Shown here: piece after piece, positions 27,222-46,430 of the stretch
Position numbering within the stretch: position 1 is the first letter of the stretch
Layout of the letters: the number at the start of each line of letters is the position of its first letter
Assembly (NCBI RefSeq): GCF_944393015.1
Contig: NZ_CALXYQ010000021.1
Span: 1-52,642, forward strand
DNA from: an uncultured Brachyspira sp.
Lineage (GTDB): Bacteria > Spirochaetota > Brachyspiria > Brachyspirales > Brachyspiraceae
Direction of reading: 5' to 3'
DNA length: 52,642 nt
The notes under the pieces: generated by a model
The model's database searches: none
Told to the model about the DNA's origin: nothing
Seen by the model: the letters and a program-made list of their open reading frames with translations, nothing else
Program-made: the position numbers and the translations under genes

Positions 27222-27232
27222 GAATAATAACA

Positions 27233-27310
27233 AGCAGCCAGTAACTTTAGTTACTGGCTTATATTGGCGATGCTGTAGGTAAGACCCTTATTGTTGGCAT
27301 AGTAATAATA
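27233..27310. repeat. Hairpin plus mosaic repeat downstream of the ankyrin pseudogene
   Basis: GCCAGTAACT and AGTTACTGGC form a 10-bp stem with a 2-nt apex (effectively 4-nt or more), near 27236-27258. The same stem recurs at about 29812 and 32158. It is followed by a D-type unit (GTAGGTAAGACCC...GGCATAGTAATAA, 27275-27310). It could act as a terminator for the ankyrin gene, although no long T-run follows. Confidence 0.6.
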
Positions 27311-27401
27311 AAATATAATTTATAAAAATTGTGAGGATCTAGCAAATTTATTTGCTAGAGTTGGTTAGCGAACAATTTTTATTGATAATAATAGGATTCA
27401 A

Positions 27402-28433
27402 ATGATAAAAAAATATATTGTCTTAATTATTGTTGGAATAGTTTTAATGGTAAATATTTCTTATGGTATATCTCAAGATGAAAGAAATTTTTTGAATGCC
27501 TGCCATTATGGTTACATTGATATAATTGAAAAATTAATTGATAAAGTTAATATTAATGTTCAAGATGAAGAAAAAGGATATACTCCTTTAATGAATGCTA
27601 TAAGAGGAAGAAAAATAGAAACTGTTAAAATTTTATTAGAACATAATGCAGATGTTACTAAAATAAAAAGTAATAATGGAAGAAATGCTTTTTTCTGGGC
27701 TGCTGCTTTAGATGAACTTGAAATGTTAAAACTATTTGAAAAATATAATCCTGATTTTAATACTGTAGATAATGACGGTGCTACTGCTTTATTTTATGCT
27801 AGTAAAATAGAAACTATGGATTATCTAATAAAAAACGGTATTGATGTTAATAAAAAAGATATAACTGGAAGAACTGCTTTAATACAATATTCGTTAGCAT
27901 ACCAAAGCCAAAATATTGTAAGGTTTTTAATTGAAAACGGCGCAGATGTTAATGCTCAGGATAATGAAGGAATAACAACATTGATGTTTGCTGTCAAGGA
28001 TTATAATATTGAAATAGTAAATATGTGCTTATCAGCAAATGCCAATCTTCATATAAAAGACAAAGAAGGAAAAACAGCTTTATTTTATACATTATTATAT
28101 TTTTATGCTATAGATTATGGTAAAAATATGACATATAATATGTTTGGAAAAATTAATGCTGACATAAGTGAATTTATAACAGGGAATAGAAAAAAAGAAC
28201 AAGAAGAAGCAACTAAAAATGTTATTAAATTTGTAAAGCTATTAACAGATAATGGGGCAGATATCAATTCACAGGATAACAAAGGAAACACTTTATTAAT
28301 GTATGCTGTAACCTTTAAATATAAACCTCTTGTAGATGAGATATTAAAATTCAATCCTGATCTTAATATAAAAAATAAAGAAGGTAAAACAGCTAGTGAT
28401 ATAGCAAAGGAGTACGGTTATAAAATAGTATAA
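27402..28433 (+). CDS. Secreted ankyrin-repeat protein
   Basis: This 343-residue protein has a signal peptide (MIKKYIVLIIVGIVLMVNIS, cleavage probably before YGISQDER). About nine ankyrin repeats follow, visible as recurring GxTALxxA and LLxxGADVNxxDxxG motifs, for example IENGADVNAQDNEGITTLMF. One repeat is extended by an insertion around residues 230-270 (YAIDYGKNMTYNMFGK). It belongs to the same family as the broken gene just upstream but carries a standard, not a lipoprotein, signal. AGGAT precedes the ATG. Ankyrin arrays bind proteins; an exported location is inferred. The target is unknown. Confidence 0.88.
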   Translation: MIKKYIVLIIVGIVLMVNISYGISQDERNFLNACHYGYIDIIEKLIDKVNINVQDEEKGYTPLMNAIRGRKIETVKILLEHNADVTKIKSNNGRNAFFWAAALDELEMLKLFEKYNPDFNTVDNDGATALFYASKIETMDYLIKNGIDVNKKDITGRTALIQYSLAYQSQNIVRFLIENGADVNAQDNEGITTLMFAVKDYNIEIVNMCLSANANLHIKDKEGKTALFYTLLYFYAIDYGKNMTYNMFGKINADISEFITGNRKKEQEEATKNVIKFVKLLTDNGADINSQDNKGNTLLMYAVTFKYKPLVDEILKFNPDLNIKNKEGKTASDIAKEYGYKIV

Positions 28434-28494
28434 TATTGAATGTTTTATAAATTTGTAATATTTATGTTTTAATTTATATATAAGGATAAGAAAA

Positions 28495-28825
28495 AATTAA
28501 AACTATATATAACTAATAAAAAACTTGTGAGTGTAGTAAAAAATAAATTTTTTATATATAATAAAAAATGTAGGTAAGACACACTTGCGGGTGGCATAAC
28601 AACAAAATAAAAAATTACAAGATTTTGAAAATTATATATAACAAAAAAGTGAGCCGAGCACAGACGTGCTTATTCACTACTTTAAGGCGACCAGGTAGGC
28701 ACTTTCAGTGGGCGACCAAGTAGGCACCCTTTGGGTGACATAACAACAACCAAGCGAGCCGAAGCCAGCTAGTGAGTTTACTCACTAGCTTATTTAAGGC
28801 GTAGGCGAGCATAGCAACAACAGGA
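28495..28825. repeat. Mosaic hairpin repeat cluster before SH3 protein 1
   Basis: This gene-free stretch is composed of recurring pieces: ACTTGTGAGTGTA...TTTTTTATATA (28525-28562, also near 31826); D units at 28570-28604 and 28720-28750 (GTAGGC...CACC-loop-GGTG-ACATAACAACAA); AAGTGAGCCGAGC; and an 10-bp stem AGCTAGTGAG-TTTA-CTCACTAGCT (about 28771-28794). It ends in GGCGAGCATAGCAACAACAGGAG, so the last element overlaps the ribosome-binding site of the next gene. Confidence 0.65.
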
Positions 28826-28834
28826 GTTATTACA

Positions 28835-29704
28835 ATGAAAAAAATTATTTTATTTCTTTTAAGCATTAATTTTTTATGGGCATTTCCACCTAGTGAAGCA
28901 TATTTTTCTGAACTTTTAAGCGATGATGGTAAAGTGACAAAAAATACACTTAAAGCCTATAATGTAGAAAGTTATGGTATTGTTTATTTTGATGGAGAGA
29001 TTACATTAACAGGAGTTCTTGAAAGATCTGATAATTATGATATGGGAAATAATTATACTGCTTTGAGATTTTATCCTGATAATAATGTAGATCTTCCTTT
29101 TTTATACGTTTCATCTGAAATGGATTTGAAAAATCAAGGTGCTTCTAAATATGGTGATTCTTGGGATTTTAGCGGTGTTGAATTTGACAGATTGGAATTC
29201 GGTGTTTTATTAAAAAATATTGAAGTAAAATTACCAGAACCTTTGAATAAAAGATTTTTAGGTGCTGCTGCTGTAAGAGCAGAAATAACAATAAAAAATT
29301 ATCATTTTTACGGAGAAGGTGAAGCATCTAGAGAGGCTTACGGTGATATTGTAGGTTTTAAGGCTTTAGGTGATGTAGAAACAGAGTATTTTAGTAAAAA
29401 TAATTATAATTCAGGAGATGTTCATTACAACGAACTTCAATATAATTCTAAAGATGATTATGTGAATATAAGAGATAAAGCAAATGGAAAAATAATAGGA
29501 AAGATTTTGAAAAGAGATATGATTTATAATGGGGGAATTTTATTATCTATCAATGGAGAAGGTATTGATTATGAGAATTATCAAGATATCGAAACAAAGT
29601 GGCTTGAAGTATTTTATCTTCCTCCAGAGGCTGAAGACGGAAAAGATGCAATTCATGGCTTTGTGCATGGTTCACAGATAAAACTTGAAAACGGAGGCTA
29701 TTAA
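28835..29704 (+). CDS. Secreted protein with C-terminal SH3-like domain, copy 1
   Basis: This 289-residue protein has a signal peptide (MKKIILFLLSINFLWA, cleavage before FPPSEAYF). The central region (about 30-190) is of unknown fold and contains ITLTGVLERSDN and PEPLNKRFLGAAAVRAE blocks. The C-terminus has a bacterial SH3-like domain with DDYVNIRDKANGKIIGKILK (VNIR is the usual SH3b start) and WLEVFYLPP...IHGFVHGSQI. Such domains bind peptidoglycan or short peptides. AGGAG lies before the ATG. It is one of two tandem copies (the second at 29989) about 1,154 bp apart, each preceded by the same mosaic repeat. An envelope-associated role is inferred. Confidence 0.8.
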   Translation: MKKIILFLLSINFLWAFPPSEAYFSELLSDDGKVTKNTLKAYNVESYGIVYFDGEITLTGVLERSDNYDMGNNYTALRFYPDNNVDLPFLYVSSEMDLKNQGASKYGDSWDFSGVEFDRLEFGVLLKNIEVKLPEPLNKRFLGAAAVRAEITIKNYHFYGEGEASREAYGDIVGFKALGDVETEYFSKNNYNSGDVHYNELQYNSKDDYVNIRDKANGKIIGKILKRDMIYNGGILLSINGEGIDYENYQDIETKWLEVFYLPPEAEDGKDAIHGFVHGSQIKLENGGY

Positions 29705-29980
29705 AAGAGCATAGCAACAGAATAAAAAATTACGAGCTTTTGAAAATTATATTAATAAAAAAGTGAGCCGACCGACACTCTGTGTGCCGTAGGCAAGGTA
29801 CCTTTGGTAAGCAGCCAGTAACTTTAGTTGCTGGCTTATATTAGCGACCAAGTAGGCACCTTCGGTGGGCGACCGGGTAGGCACCCTTTGGGTGACATAG
29901 CAACAACCAAGCGAGCCAAGCCAGTGAATAAGTTTACTTATTCACTACTTTAAGGCGAGGCGAGCATAGCAACAATAGGA
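29705..29980. repeat. Mosaic hairpin repeat cluster between the SH3 copies
   Basis: A gene-free 284-bp gap. It contains AAGTGAGCCGACCGACACTCTG, the GCCAGTAACTTTAGTTGCTGGC hairpin (about 29814-29837), a D unit at 29877-29907 and the stem AGTGAATAAG-TTTA-CTTATTCACT (about 29924-29947), then GGCGAGCATAGCAACAATAGGAG. It is clearly related in order and sequence to the cluster at 28.6-28.8 kb but not collinear with it: the variable stem differs while its flanks are conserved. Confidence 0.65.
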
Positions 29981-29988
29981 GTTATTCA

Positions 29989-30816
29989 ATGAAGAAAATT
30001 ATTTTGTTTCTTTTAAGCATTAATTTCTTATGGGCATTTCCGCCTAGTGAAGCGTATTTTTCTGAACTTTTAAGCGATAATGGTAAAGTAACAAAAAATA
30101 CACTTAAACTAAAAAAAATTGATGGCGGCAATTATTCTGCTTATTTTGATGGTGAAATTACATTAACAGGAGTTCTTGAAAGATCTGATAATTCTGATGT
30201 TGATACTATTTATAGTGCTTTAAGATTTTATCCTGATAATAATATTGATTTGCCTTTTTTATTTAGTCTAGTTAGTGCAGATTCCTATAATATAGATGAT
30301 TATAAAGAATTTGAAAGATTAGACTTCGGTGTTTTATTAGAAAATATTAAAGTAAAATTACCAGAACCTTTGAATAAAAGATTTTTAGGTGCTGCTGCTG
30401 TAAGGGCGGAGGTAACAATAAGAAATTATTCTATTTTTTGTGAAGGTGAAGCAGGAAGAGAGGCTTATGGAGAGCTTGTAAATTTCAAACTATTAGGAGA
30501 TATTAAAACAGAGTATTTTGATAAGTATGATTATGAATTTAAAGGAGAAGCTATTTATAGTATTCTTGAATATAATTCTAAAGATGATTATGTGAATATA
30601 AGAGATAAAGCAAATGGAAAAATAATAGGAAAGATTTTGAAAAAAGATATGATTAATAATGGGGGACTTTTATTATTAGTTGATATTAACGGCGATTTAA
30701 GTGATTGGGAAAAAAACTGGATTGAAGTGTATTACTTACCTCCTGATGATAATGACAGCAAAGGTACGATTCATGGTTTTGTTCATGGTTCGCAGATAAA
30801 AACTAGATATAATTAA
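29989..30816 (+). CDS. Secreted protein with C-terminal SH3-like domain, copy 2
   Basis: This 275-residue paralogue of the preceding gene has a nearly identical signal peptide and first 35 residues (MKKIILFLLSINFLWAFPPS). The PEPLNKRFLGAAAVRAE block and SH3-like core DDYVNIRDKANGKIIGKILK are also nearly identical. The two segments between these (residues 36-100 and 150-185) differ markedly and are shorter here. The conserved-variable-conserved pattern suggests either gene conversion at the ends or selection for variety in the middle. AGGAG lies before the ATG. A strong promoter and the Rpn nuclease gene follow 47 nt later. Confidence 0.8.
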   Translation: MKKIILFLLSINFLWAFPPSEAYFSELLSDNGKVTKNTLKLKKIDGGNYSAYFDGEITLTGVLERSDNSDVDTIYSALRFYPDNNIDLPFLFSLVSADSYNIDDYKEFERLDFGVLLENIKVKLPEPLNKRFLGAAAVRAEVTIRNYSIFCEGEAGREAYGELVNFKLLGDIKTEYFDKYDYEFKGEAIYSILEYNSKDDYVNIRDKANGKIIGKILKKDMINNGGLLLLVDINGDLSDWEKNWIEVYYLPPDDNDSKGTIHGFVHGSQIKTRYN

Positions 30817-30828
30817 AACAATATAATT

Positions 30829-30857
30829 TTGACAATTTATATTAATTTTATTATAAT
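30829..30857 (+). promoter_or_regulatory. Consensus promoter for a predicted leaderless Rpn mRNA
   Basis: TTGACA (30829-30834), 17 bp, TATAAT (30852-30857) is a perfect sigma-70 match. Exactly 6 nt separate it from the ATG at 30864, so the start codon is expected to be the 5' end of the mRNA. Confidence 0.75.
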
Positions 30858-30863
30858 GTTTGT

Positions 30864-31727
30864 ATGATGGATAATGATTATAAAAGTATAAAATATTTTA
30901 ATACATTAAATGATTATTTTGTTAGATATCTTTTTTCTGATAAAGGAAGCGAGGCAATATTATTGGATTTTATTAATTCAATAATGCTTGACTCTGGAAT
31001 GAAGACTTTTAGAAGTGTAGAAATACTTACTCCTTTTAATTATAAGGAAAATTATGAAGATAAAGAAATCATAACAGATGTAAAATGTATAACTCAAAAT
31101 GGTTCAGTTGTTATAATAGAGATTCAGCTTCAAGGTAATTCAAGGTTTCCAGAGCGCATACTTTATTATTGGTCTTATAATTACAGTAAACTTTTAAAGC
31201 AGGGTGAAAAGTATGATGCTCTAACTCCTGTAATAAGTATTAATCTTCTTAATTTTAATTTAGATGATTCAGCAAATATTCATTCCTGTTATATGATTTA
31301 TGATACAGTTAATCAAAGATTATTAACAGACCATTTACAAATACATATAATTGAAGTGAAAAAATTTAAATGCAATTTATTAAAACCAGATTTAGATTGC
31401 TGGCTTAAATTTTTTACTATGAAAGAAAATGATAATAAGGAGGCTATTATGTCAGAAATAGTAAAAGAAAAACCTATAATGGAAGAAGTGCAAAGAAGAT
31501 ATAATAACTTCATTAAAGACAGACTAATGATGAATGAATATGATAAAAGACAAGTATATTTATATGGAAATCAAATAATGCTTGAAGAAGAGCGAAGACT
31601 AGGAATTGAAGAAGGTGAAAAAAACAAAGCAATATCTATAGCTAGTAATTTAAAAAAAGCCGGCATCGATATAAAAATAATTAGTGAAAATACAGGATTG
31701 AGTATAGAAGAAATAGAAAAATTGTAA
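30864..31727 (+). CDS. Rpn-family PD-(D/E)XK nuclease, copy 1
   Basis: This 287-residue protein belongs to the Rpn/PDDEXK_2 family, often labelled recombination-promoting nuclease or putative transposase. The nuclease core is D72 in ITDVKC and E86-I87-Q88 in VVIIEIQL, the family's D...ExQ active site. The opening YFNTLNDYFVRYLF motif and the middle YYWSYNYSKLLKQGEKY block are typical. A helical C-terminal part ends in a charged IEEGEKNKAISIASNLKKAG coil. Rpn proteins cut DNA and have been linked to recombination and, in some cases, phage resistance. No Shine-Dalgarno site exists. A second copy is at 44742-45596 on the other strand. Confidence 0.85.
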   Translation: MMDNDYKSIKYFNTLNDYFVRYLFSDKGSEAILLDFINSIMLDSGMKTFRSVEILTPFNYKENYEDKEIITDVKCITQNGSVVIIEIQLQGNSRFPERILYYWSYNYSKLLKQGEKYDALTPVISINLLNFNLDDSANIHSCYMIYDTVNQRLLTDHLQIHIIEVKKFKCNLLKPDLDCWLKFFTMKENDNKEAIMSEIVKEKPIMEEVQRRYNNFIKDRLMMNEYDKRQVYLYGNQIMLEEERRLGIEEGEKNKAISIASNLKKAGIDIKIISENTGLSIEEIEKL

Positions 31728-31799
31728 GTTTATAAATGTTAGTATTTGATGAAAAGTATGCGGATATAATAAATTAAAAAATAACATAACAATAATAAA

Positions 31800-32215
31800 A
31801 AATTAAAACCATATAGAACTAACAAAAACTTGTGAGTGTATTAACGAATAAGTTTTTTATATAAAATAAAAAAGCTAGCCGACGAAGTCCTCTATGATGT
31901 CGGTAAGGCACCATTACGGGGGCATAATAACAACCAAGTGAGCCGGCCGACACTCTGTGTGCAGGACTAAGTCCACCTCGCGAAGCGTGCCGACGAAGTC
32001 CACCTTATGGTGTCGGCAGATGTAGGCAAGACACCATTAAAGGCGGCATAGCAACAGAATAAAAAATTACGAGCTTTTGAAAATTATATTAATAAAAAAG
32101 TGAGCCGACCGAGTAGGTACCTTTACAGGTGACATAGCAACAACCAAGTGAGCCGGAGCAGCCAGTAACTTTAGTTGCTGGCTTATATTAGTGTAGGCGA
32201 ACCTAATAATAGGAA
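31800..32215. repeat. Mosaic hairpin repeat cluster between Rpn and DUF4234 genes
   Basis: A gene-free 490-bp gap. It contains ACTTGTGAGTGTATTAACG (about 31829), three D units (31902-31934, 32022-32056, 32113-32144), short stem-loops such as CACCTTATGGTG, and the GCCAGTAACTTTAGTTGCTGGC hairpin near 32160. Also present is the phrase AAAAAATTACGAGCTTTTG (about 32060) which recurs near 29728. The last element reaches to the ribosome-binding region of the DUF4234 gene. Confidence 0.65.
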
Positions 32216-32220
32216 ACAAT

Positions 32221-32787
32221 ATGAATATAGGTGCTGTAAGATCAATTCCTACAATGTTTATTCTAAACTTCTTTACTTTAGGAATATACCATTACTATTG
32301 GATTTATTATATTACTTTAGAAGTGCAGAATTTTACCAAAAGAAAAGATATATCTCCTTCATTAGAACTTTTACTTAGTATTATTACATGCAATCTTTAC
32401 AGCGTATTTTGGTATAATAAATACGGAAACATTATTCATAAAGAAATAGCTTTAAAAATTGATGAAAACGATAAAAATGATGTCACTCAAATAAGTATGG
32501 TTTCATTTATTATTGTATTATTTGTAGGTATGCCAATTATAGGGGGATTAATATTTGCTTTTGTTATGGGAGTATTGCTAAGCGGTATGTCAGTACTTTA
32601 CGGAGGAGCTTATAATAGTTTTACTTTGAATCCTGAAGTATTATTAGTATTTGCTGGTACTATATTGGCACTCATTATTATTATTCTAGTAATTACTGCT
32701 ATGCTGCTTATTCCTGATATTATTGTGCAAAAGAAATTAAATACTATATGGACAAAAGTAAAAGAACTTCATTATAATAAAAATTAA
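32221..32787 (+). CDS. DUF4234-like membrane protein
   Basis: This 188-residue protein has about four to five membrane helices. The N-terminal segment FFTLGIYHYYWIYYITLEVQ and the repeated TCNLYSVFWYNKYG block (turn-Tyr-x-x-x-W) are typical of DUF4234 proteins, whose function is unknown. AGGAAA lies before the ATG. Immediately after the TAA stop (32785-32787) the sequence switches to a fragment that matches the 3' end of the gene at 46167-46430. This is the junction of a long duplication. The gene itself is intact. Confidence 0.7.
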   Translation: MNIGAVRSIPTMFILNFFTLGIYHYYWIYYITLEVQNFTKRKDISPSLELLLSIITCNLYSVFWYNKYGNIIHKEIALKIDENDKNDVTQISMVSFIIVLFVGMPIIGGLIFAFVMGVLLSGMSVLYGGAYNSFTLNPEVLLVFAGTILALIIIILVITAMLLIPDIIVQKKLNTIWTKVKELHYNKN

Positions 32788-33171
32788 TGAAGATAAAGTC
32801 TGGGATATTAAATAGCGGCAAAGATTGATTATATTTGTAACTATTCCTAAATAAATAAATTTTATGTGCTTTTGCAACTTTGACGAAGTCCGCAGAGCGT
32901 ATGCCATGAAAAAGTTGATAAAAAATAAGTTTAAAATTTTTTATTTATATATACTTTCATCTAAACTTTTATATTTTATTCTAAAATTAGAATTTTAATA
33001 AAGATAAAAAATTTAAATGTCTGGGTTTGGGAATGAATCTTTTCTAATTCCCCGCCATTTATATTTTTTTTCTTTATTCTGTTATTTTTGTTTTTTATTT
33101 CTTTATTGTTTTAAAATAAATGTTAATGCCCGCCCGAGTTTTATTTAAATTTATAATGCATTCACCGCACG
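32788..33171. repeat. Roughly 380-bp direct repeat, left copy (partner at 46403-46781)
   Basis: The stretch from TGAAGATAAAGTCTGGG to CACCGCACG is nearly identical to 46403-46781. It includes the last codons of the small membrane-protein gene at 46167 (DKVWDIK-stop, at about 32794-32814), the C-type hairpin at 32868-32930, and module A. Similarity ends inside the left terminal repeat of module B. The two copies are in the same orientation, 13.6 kb apart. Confidence 0.85.
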
Positions 33172-34870: not shown

Positions 34871-38244
<3,374 letters not shown>

Positions 38245-42816: not shown

Positions 42817-44244
<1,428 letters not shown>

Positions 44245-44337
44245 TTATTATTTATGCGGTTTAAAATTCAGCGATAAACGAGCAGCTGATAACTGATGAA
44301 GGAAGTTGTGAGTTAATTCTTAAATAAAAAAATCGAG

Positions 44338-44363
44338 CCTCTATCAGCTTTAGCTGATAGAGG
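44338..44363 (+). terminator. Hairpin after GH1 of cassette 2
   Basis: CCTCTATCAGCT (44338-44349) pairs with AGCTGATAGAGG (44352-44363), 12 bp with a tight apex. It is flanked by AAAAAAATCGAG before and GCGAGATTTTTT after, which can extend the structure. Equivalent hairpin to 38354-38375. Confidence 0.55.
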
Positions 44364-44397
44364 TATAAAAGCGAGATTTTTTATATATAAATAAAAT

Positions 44398-44436
44398 AAG
44401 AAAGTTATAGCTTCTAATGGTGAGGACTTAGATTGA
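44398..44436 (+). pseudogene. Orphan 3' tail of a third GH1 gene
   Basis: This reads [12 protein letters not shown]-stop in frame and nearly matches the last codons of the GH1 gene that ends at 44244 (GGTGAG for GGCGAG, GAT for GAC). It is not part of any longer open frame. It begins directly after the terminator hairpin, and the sequence changes to module B just after its stop. I read it as what remains after deletion of a third GH1 copy. Confidence 0.8.
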
Positions 44437-44450
44437 TTATAATTTAAACT

Positions 44451-44690
44451 ATCACGCACGGTGTGTGAAATTTAAAATATAAGCTTATTTCAAATTATAA
44501 TTTAAACTATATAAAAAAATACATTTACCGTGCGTTAATAAAAATTTTCAATATAATAACAGCTTGGGTGGGTATTAAAATAACAGTGTAAAATAACAAA
44601 ATAAAATATATAAAAATAGCAGTTAAGATTTTAAATTTAGAGGGTGGGAGTTAGAATAAAATTTTGTTTTTAAATCTTTTCTAATTTCCC
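44451..44690. repeat. Composite element B-A'-(truncated A)
   Basis: B at 44451-44536 (CACGCACGG to ACCGTGCGTTA); A' at 44561-44658 (GCTTGGGTGGG to GAGGGTGGGAGTTAGAAT); then the start of A, cut off at about 44680 (TTTCTAATTTCCC). It is placed between the convergent GH1 and Rpn genes; no gene is present in 44437-44741. Confidence 0.8.
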
Positions 44691-44741
44691 ATATTTTTTC
44701 TTTATTTGTATGCATTTTTAAGCATACTATAAATGTTTAGC

Positions 44742-45596
44742 TCATAATTTTTTTATTTCTTCTATAGTCAAACCTGTATATTTAGAAATAATATTAATAT
44801 CAACTTTATCATCTTTCATTTGTTTTGCTATAGAAGTTTGTCCTTCTTTTATACCTTTTTGCATTCCTTCTTCTATTCCCTTTATACGCTCCTCATTAAG
44901 CATTAAAACATTAAAATAATCTCTTTCATAATTACTATAGCCATTATATAAATCATTACTTTTTACAAATTTGTTATATTCTTCATATACTTCTTTCATT
45001 ATAGGATTTTTCTTTACTAATATTTCCATAGTATCCTCCAATTTATCTTTCGAATTTAAAAACTCAAACCAATCTGATAAACCTTCATATAAATTATAAG
45101 AATTACTAAATTTCCTAAGCTCTAGAAAATGAAGCTCTAAATGATTAGTTAATATATGATTAGTTTCTAACTCTTTAATAAAATAACAGCTATGAGGCTT
45201 ATCTATACCTTTTATCAAATTAAAATCAAGAATATTAATACTTATTACAGGTGTTAAATCTGAATATATATCCTTAGATTTTAAATTTGTAAAATAATTT
45301 TTAGCCCAATAGTATAAACTTCTATATATAAATGACTGATTACCTATTCTTTGTATTTCTATAATTATAGTTTCGCCTGATTTCGTTTTTGCTTTAACAT
45401 CTGCTATTGATTCTTTATCAAATACATTTTCTTTTAGATTAAAAGTATTTAAAACTTCTATATATTCAAAAGGCTCTTGATTAGAATCTATCCTAACAGA
45501 ATTAATAAGATTTTTAAGTATATGCTCATGTCCTTCTTTAGCAAACATATAACGCATAAAATAATCATTCAAAACATTAAAATACTTTCCACTCAT
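44742..45596 (-). CDS. Rpn-family PD-(D/E)XK nuclease, copy 2
   Basis: This 284-residue paralogue of the gene at 30864 has the start YFNVLNDYFMRYMFAK and active-site residues D66 (IADVKAK) and E80-I81-Q82 (TIIIEIQR). A conserved SLYYWAKNYFTNLKS block and a C-terminal charged helix follow (IEEGMQKGIKEGQTSIAKQM). The last 20 residues, ending YTGLTIEEIKKL, are close to copy 1's (NTGLSIEEIEKL). It belongs to the family of recombination-associated nucleases, related to some mobile-element proteins. The ATG is 6 nt from a perfect -10 box and has no Shine-Dalgarno site. It is flanked by A/B elements on both sides, with no recognisable inverted-repeat ends of its own. Confidence 0.85.
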   Translation of the reverse strand: MSGKYFNVLNDYFMRYMFAKEGHEHILKNLINSVRIDSNQEPFEYIEVLNTFNLKENVFDKESIADVKAKTKSGETIIIEIQRIGNQSFIYRSLYYWAKNYFTNLKSKDIYSDLTPVISINILDFNLIKGIDKPHSCYFIKELETNHILTNHLELHFLELRKFSNSYNLYEGLSDWFEFLNSKDKLEDTMEILVKKNPIMKEVYEEYNKFVKSNDLYNGYSNYERDYFNVLMLNEERIKGIEEGMQKGIKEGQTSIAKQMKDDKVDINIISKYTGLTIEEIKKL

Positions 45597-46166: not shown

Positions 46167-46430
46167 ATGTCAGGATTAACATTTTGGTTTGCATTTTTAT
46201 TAGTTATATTCATTTTTACTAGATATTTTATATTACCCAAAATATTTAGCAAAGATTCAAAAGAATTTAAAAAATATGTTGAAGAAGCATATAATGATTT
46301 GGATAAATACTACAATTCAGGTAATGAACGGTCTAAAGAAATGATAAAAAATTCAATTATTGGTATGGCTAAAGAAGGAAATGATATAGCAAAAAAATTC
46401 TGTGAAGATAAAGTCTGGGATATTAAATAG
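46167..46430 (+). CDS. Small membrane protein of unknown function
   Basis: This 87-residue protein has one N-terminal membrane helix (FWFAFLLVIFIFTRYFILP) and a charged, helical cytoplasmic tail (KDSKEFKKYVEEAYNDLDKY...). I start it at the ATG at 46167, 6 nt after AGGAA, and not at the TTG at 46161. No family is recognised. Its last seven codons, DKVWDIK and the stop, and about 350 bp downstream also occur at 32788-33171, showing that the locus or its end has been duplicated. Confidence 0.65.
   Translation: MSGLTFWFAFLLVIFIFTRYFILPKIFSKDSKEFKKYVEEAYNDLDKYYNSGNERSKEMIKNSIIGMAKEGNDIAKKFCEDKVWDIK

What the first reader, a model, noticed from the sequence alone, without database searches (positions are those of the whole stretch)
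44398..44436. Orphan GH1 3' end, next to a module B
A 39-bp in-frame fragment encodes [12 protein letters not shown]-stop, the GH1 tail, but no gene precedes it. The fragment is followed by a module B after about 15 bp. Together with the tail at 32788 this is the second case of a gene's last codons surviving beside an element, so cassette loss may commonly leave 3' footprints.
Basis: partly seen in the sequence, partly recalled or inferred. Interest (0 to 1): 0.65.

Follow-up and report, generated by a model that had tools for sequence, protein, structure and literature searches.

The report
Hairpin element copies gene tail ends
The 39-base scrap is the original last stretch of the intact sugar-enzyme gene just upstream of it, pushed away by a small hairpin repeat that sits next to many genes in this bacterial genus (Brachyspira) and is often followed by a second copy of the neighbouring gene's tail.

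Summary
The 39-bp GH1 tail at 44398-44436 is real, but "no gene precedes it" is wrong: an intact GH1 gene (42820-44244) ends 153 bp upstream with the same [12 protein letters not shown]-stop. The layout is gene tail T (44206-44244), hairpin element E (about 44270-44394), second tail T' (44398-44436), then module B. In four other Brachyspira genomes a GH1 stop runs straight into module B, so T' with its flank is the native gene end. No lost third GH1 gene is needed. The pattern is general: E occurs in 20 of 26 Brachyspira genomes, its fold is supported by compensatory changes, and about a quarter of sampled copies carry a T' starting exactly at E's right end. T' length varies (about 14 to over 130 bp). 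Junctions prefer G|A in the gene (18/24, p=3e-7). T and T' differ mostly at third codon positions (54/77), and at moxR a T' can match another species' living gene better than its own T. Best reading: E's right end is repeatedly joined to the tail of its own host gene or an allele of it; recombination then shuffles alleles. The enzyme is unknown.

The parts
42820..44244 (+). intact GH1 (family 1 glycosidase) gene that owns both tails
   Evidence: ORF of 474 aa; PF00232 E=4.9e-127
44206..44248 (+). T: working 3' end of the GH1 gene ([12 protein letters not shown]-stop + TTAT)
   Evidence: read
44270..44394 (+). E: hairpin element (left arm AGCGATAAACGAG, first hairpin 44285-44318, nested terminator-like hairpin about 44331-44387); its right arm GTTTATCGCTAGCAATAATAA is deleted in this copy
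   Evidence: 27 places in own genome match the query stretch that spans E, most of them in E itself; genus-wide; covariance model partial hit 44270-44332 E=9e-4; fold z=-3.5; terminator-like hairpin 44338-44363
44398..44440 (+). T': displaced native 3' end of the GH1 gene (the finding)
   Evidence: contiguous with the flank seen in empty sites of G022, G023, G014, G012
44441..44708 (+). module B, native downstream flank (starts TAATTTAAACTATCACGCACGG)
   Evidence: repeat families D5, D9; same flank follows a GH1 stop in genomes without E
44742..45596 (-). PD-(D/E)XK nuclease family 'transposase' (PDDEXK_2, Rpn-like) next to module B
   Evidence: PF12784 E=8e-43; 30 copies in own genome
38286..38433 (+). 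second E copy, after the paralogous GH1 gene 36808-38244; right arm intact, no T' behind it

Best explanation
The fragment is T', the displaced native 3' end of the GH1 gene that ends 153 bp upstream. A small, non-coding, fold-back element (E; core fold: outer stem, tandem G-A step, inner hairpin, then the right end TAGCAATAATAA) lies directly behind the working gene end T and directly in front of T'. Shown: the T-E-T' order, sites without E, recurrence at unrelated genes and species, T' starting exactly at E's right end, variable T' length, a preferred G|A junction in the gene, conserved folding of E, and T and T' that often have separate allelic ancestry. Inferred: E's right end is cut or attacked by an unknown nuclease or transposase-like enzyme and joined at a G|A site in the tail of its own host gene, on an E-less allele (giving T-E-T' with the native flank) or on an E-bearing sister copy (giving (T-E)n arrays). 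Homologous recombination in the gene body then closes the left side, so the host gene keeps a complete end, and later moves these arrangements between strains. In this window E has also lost its right arm together with the first bases of T', a form shared with G009 and G024.
For: Empty sites: in G022, G014, G012 and, with another GH1 body, G023, the GH1 stop runs into the same module-B flank. Recurrence: T-E-T' or arrays at GH1 in G000, G009, G024, G015, G004, G005, at rsgA, at a MoxR-like gene and at several others. 19 of 63 distinct element right ends are followed by a copy of their own upstream sequence, against 39/928 with other loci's upstream sequence and 1/63 on the reverse complement. 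E's left context at GH1 is alike in six species while the right junction differs (T' about 60, 39, 19, 16, 14 bp). Junction preceded by G in 18/24, background 0.25, p=3e-7, mostly without microhomology. T/T' differences 54/77 at third codon positions, p=5e-11 against 1/3. T' at moxR of G023 is 99% like the living gene tail of G025 but 89% like its own T. E's fold: 13 of 23 pairs show compensatory changes, 141 double-change cells against 26.5 shuffled.
Against: The joining enzyme is not identified, and no E-like element carrying a gene was found. Only about 15 of 60 sampled E loci show a detectable T'. The different T' lengths at one gene could partly come from later deletions from one longer T'. 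The window's own junction is secondary (C before T, E's right arm lost), so the G|A rule cannot be read at this site. T' being chimeric with T, as allele transfer through T' would predict, is seen at moxR but not overall.
Confidence: 0.55

Rival explanations
1. Simple local event: slippage or unequal crossing-over duplicated the gene tail and spacer, and E is a bystander.
For: Arrays (T-E)n exist and expand as tandem units (L131, L130, L142); T and T' are 95% identical here.
Against: A tandem duplication would put E behind T' as well, but behind T' comes the flank found in genomes without E. Junctions are fixed at E's right end, prefer G|A and mostly lack microhomology. T and T' differ as alleles do.
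Confidence: 0.15
2. Ordinary transposition of E with one long target-site duplication at each gene.
For: In L131, L187, L194, L227, L224 and L236, T ends exactly at E's left end and T' starts exactly at its right end; G|A target preference.
Against: Length varies from about 14 to over 130 bp, unlike the fixed duplications of known DNA transposases (general knowledge); one left junction with several right junctions at the same gene (GH1); no Y1 transposase in the genome.
Confidence: 0.18
3. One reading: a third GH1 gene or cassette stood here and was lost, leaving its 3' end.
For: At 32788 a real gene-loss footprint of this sort exists; in G023 a GH1-1-like body is joined to the same tail and flank.
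Against: At 44398, genomes without E have the GH1 gene itself in front of T' (G022, G014, G012); the nearest genome G009 has the same arrangement without a third gene; it would need a lost gene at every T' in the genus.
Confidence: 0.07
4. Target-primed reverse transcription: the gene's mRNA ending in E is copied back into its own gene.
For: Variable-length duplication and an A-rich start of T' after a fixed 3' end recall LINE/SINE insertions.
Against: Reverse transcriptase (PF00078) is found in only 7 of 26 genomes, at most once, and is absent from most E-rich genomes.
Confidence: 0.05

Closest known systems
Mobile endonuclease ORFs (mORFs) of fungal mitochondria with carboxy-terminal duplication (Allomyces atp6; Glomus atp6, atp9, cox2, nad3; PMC3630166)
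   Same: Insert at a gene's 3' end that brings a replacement tail in frame; the native tail stays downstream; inserted and native tails diverge as alleles of different species.
   Different: Those carry a homing endonuclease gene; E is about 80-150 bp, non-coding and genus-wide in many copies, and no endonuclease is linked to it.
REP/REPIN/BIME palindromes and other bacterial MITEs (PMC3733652, PMC3116915, PMC2817692)
   Same: Short intergenic fold-back repeats in many copies, tandem and mosaic arrays.
   Different: No GTAG/CGTC-type tag was looked for; no Y1 transposase in the genome; variable gene-tail copies at one end with G|A junctions, whereas MITEs leave short duplications of fixed length (general knowledge).
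Rpn (YhgA-like) recombination-promoting nucleases (PMC5350276)
   Same: PD-(D/E)XK nucleases that promote RecA-independent recombination; a PDDEXK_2 relative sits beside this site and 13-40 copies occur in most E-rich genomes.
   Different: E. coli RpnA cuts nonspecifically; no link to E was shown; G001 and G012 have many PDDEXK_2 genes but no E, and G018 the reverse.

Membership tests
Bacterial MITE (non-autonomous DNA transposon) | short, non-coding, terminal inverted repeats, many dispersed copies | tested here: met
   about 70-80 bp core, stem AGYGATAAAC/GTTTATCRCT, 20 of 26 genomes
Bacterial MITE (non-autonomous DNA transposon) | short target-site duplication of fixed length | tested here: not met
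   direct copies of about 14 to over 130 bp, length differing even at the same gene
Bacterial MITE (non-autonomous DNA transposon) | autonomous parent with the same ends | not tested
   no dedicated search; none noticed in the stretches read
REP/REPIN mobilised by RAYT (Y1) transposase | Y1 transposase in the genome | tested here: not met
   PF01797 absent from own genome, found in 5 control genomes
mORF-type element with C-terminal duplication | native tail displaced downstream of an inserted replacement tail | tested here: met
   empty sites and allelic T/T'
mORF-type element with C-terminal duplication | element encodes the endonuclease that cuts the tail-less allele | tested here: not met
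   E is non-coding; the PDDEXK_2 gene lies behind module B, outside T-E-T'
Retrotransposed (LINE/SINE-like) element | reverse transcriptase available | tested here: not met
   PF00078 in 7 of 26 genomes only, not in most E-rich ones
Known Rfam RNA | match to a curated family | tested here: not met
   no match at E<=5

The most novel reading that the evidence does not exclude
E belongs to a new class of bacterial fold-back element that makes its host gene's 3' end part of the moving unit: an enzyme joins E's right end to a G|A site in the tail of the same gene on another allele, so each insertion replaces the tail and leaves the old one as T'.
Probability: 0.3. Interest if true: 0.75.

Novelty: new variant of a known kind. 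Interest (0 to 1): 0.55.

Why it matters
It turns an odd scrap into a rule: across Brachyspira, short hairpin repeats at gene ends are often followed by displaced copies of that gene's own 3' end. If right, it gives bacteria a counterpart of the tail-swapping elements known from fungal mitochondria, may explain some variable tandem repeats in these gut spirochaetes, and offers readable records of allele exchange at gene ends.

Tried and rejected
Rfam search of the site: nothing. REP/RAYT idea: no Y1 transposase. Reverse-transcription idea: too few RT genes. Microhomology-driven slippage: weak or no microhomology at junctions. Chimeric-T' test: clear at moxR only, not overall. Link to PDDEXK_2 nucleases: copy numbers agree only roughly, with clear exceptions. 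Strain-level check for a third GH1 gene: not possible, the collections hold one genome per species. Open-access literature searches found no description of these repeats in Brachyspira.

Full report
The window is part of a Brachyspira genome (G000, 3.44 Mb, contig C21; relatives named include B. alvinipulli and uncultured Brachyspira). The 39 bp at 44398-44436 do encode [12 protein letters not shown]-stop, and chance does not explain them. But an intact GH1 gene, 42820-44244, ends 153 bp upstream with the same residues.

Between the two tails lies a repeated element, E, at about 44270-44394. The query stretch that spans it matches 27 places in the own genome, most of them in the element itself, and it matches in 25 of 26 Brachyspira genomes, there including the gene itself. 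From 13 short copies a covariance model was built. It finds E in 20 of 26 genomes, from one to 50 copies each, and in none of three genomes of related genera. On 140 copies the fold is strongly supported by compensatory changes: 13 of 23 pairs, 141 double-change cells against 26.5 in shuffles; the alignment was fitted to the model, which leans towards it. The short form is AGYGATAAACGAGCAGCTGATAAC..AAGTTGTCAGCTA..GCGAGTTTATCRCTAGCAATAATAA. The window copy is a long form with a nested terminator-like hairpin and has lost its right arm.

Empty sites settle which tail is native. In G022, G014 and G012 the GH1 stop is followed within about 20 bases by the same CACGCACGG flank (module B) that follows T' in the window; in G023 the same tail and flank sit behind a GH1 gene whose body is of the neighbouring paralogue type. 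So T' plus module B is the native end, and T-E stands in front of it. G009 and G024 share the window's junction.

The arrangement is a rule. At rsgA, G007 has (T-E)x4-T' with T = 78 bp; G024 and G002 have T-E-T'; G009 is empty; G017 and G015 keep only E's right end. At a MoxR-like gene, E or a different hairpin (F, same right end TAGCAATAATA) is followed by T' in G022, G023, G024, G009 and G004, and about a dozen species have no insertion. In 60 loci taken by model score, about 15 have a T' starting within 2 bases of E's right end. Over all fetched sequence, 19 of 63 distinct right ends are followed by a copy of their own upstream sequence, against 4% with other loci and 1 of 63 on the reverse complement. 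Some of these loci were chosen because they were arrays, so this fraction is not an unbiased rate.

Three observations bear on mechanism. First, the junction: after removing shared bases, the gene base before T' is G in 18 of 24 independent junctions (background 0.25, p=3e-7), and most junctions have no microhomology. That looks like an enzyme's site preference. Second, at GH1 the left side of E is alike in six species but the right junction is not (T' about 60, 39, 19, 16 and 14 bp), so right junctions were probably made, or trimmed, several times. Third, T and T' behave as alleles: 54 of 77 differences fall on third codon positions, and T' at moxR of G023 is 99% identical to the living gene end of G025 but 89% to its own T. 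Homologous recombination is known to be substantial in B. pilosicoli (PMC8116685).

I therefore think that E's right end is repeatedly joined to the tail of its own host gene on another allele or a sister copy, and that recombination in the gene body completes the exchange. The anatomy is well shown; the joining step and its enzyme are inferred. The nearest known system is the mORF of fungal mitochondria, which brings a new gene tail and leaves the native one downstream (PMC3630166); E works like it but encodes no endonuclease, so it is not a member. It is MITE-like in form but fails the fixed-length duplication test. Reverse transcription and RAYT transposition are disfavoured.

Noticed in passing
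32785-32860: Tail ..NEDKVWDIK-stop plus module A directly behind the DUF4234 stop. G025 has a 638-codon ORF with this 3' end in between; intact short relative at 46168-46430. Looks like a gene-loss footprint shared with G009, G023, G007.
   Followed up: partly
27223-32215: Chains of related hairpins (GAGC..GCGA..ATAGCAAYAA) upstream of ankyrin-like, paralogous unknown and DUF4234 genes, with ends close to ribosome-binding sites.
   Followed up: partly
L294-L297 (rsgA of G000, G022, G024, G025): An about 850-bp insert with a module B and a small membrane-protein ORF lies between copies of the rsgA tail, so tail copies also flank larger inserts.
   Followed up: partly
L105 (G023:C110): A GH1-1-like gene body is joined to the GH1-2-type tail and module B: apparent recombination between the two GH1 paralogues with loss of the PTS/GH1-2 block.
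   Followed up: no
44742-45596 and 30864-31727: Two PDDEXK_2 (Rpn-like) nuclease genes; 30 in this genome and up to 40 in a relative, a striking expansion in the genus.
   Followed up: partly
L221, L218: Here the copied stretch beyond E is the 5' start of a minus-strand gene, so the pattern is not limited to gene 3' ends.
   Followed up: no
A2 columns 11-12 with 59-60: E's two stem parts are separated by conserved GA/GA steps (tandem sheared G-A like), a possible protein-binding feature shared by the other hairpin families.
   Followed up: no
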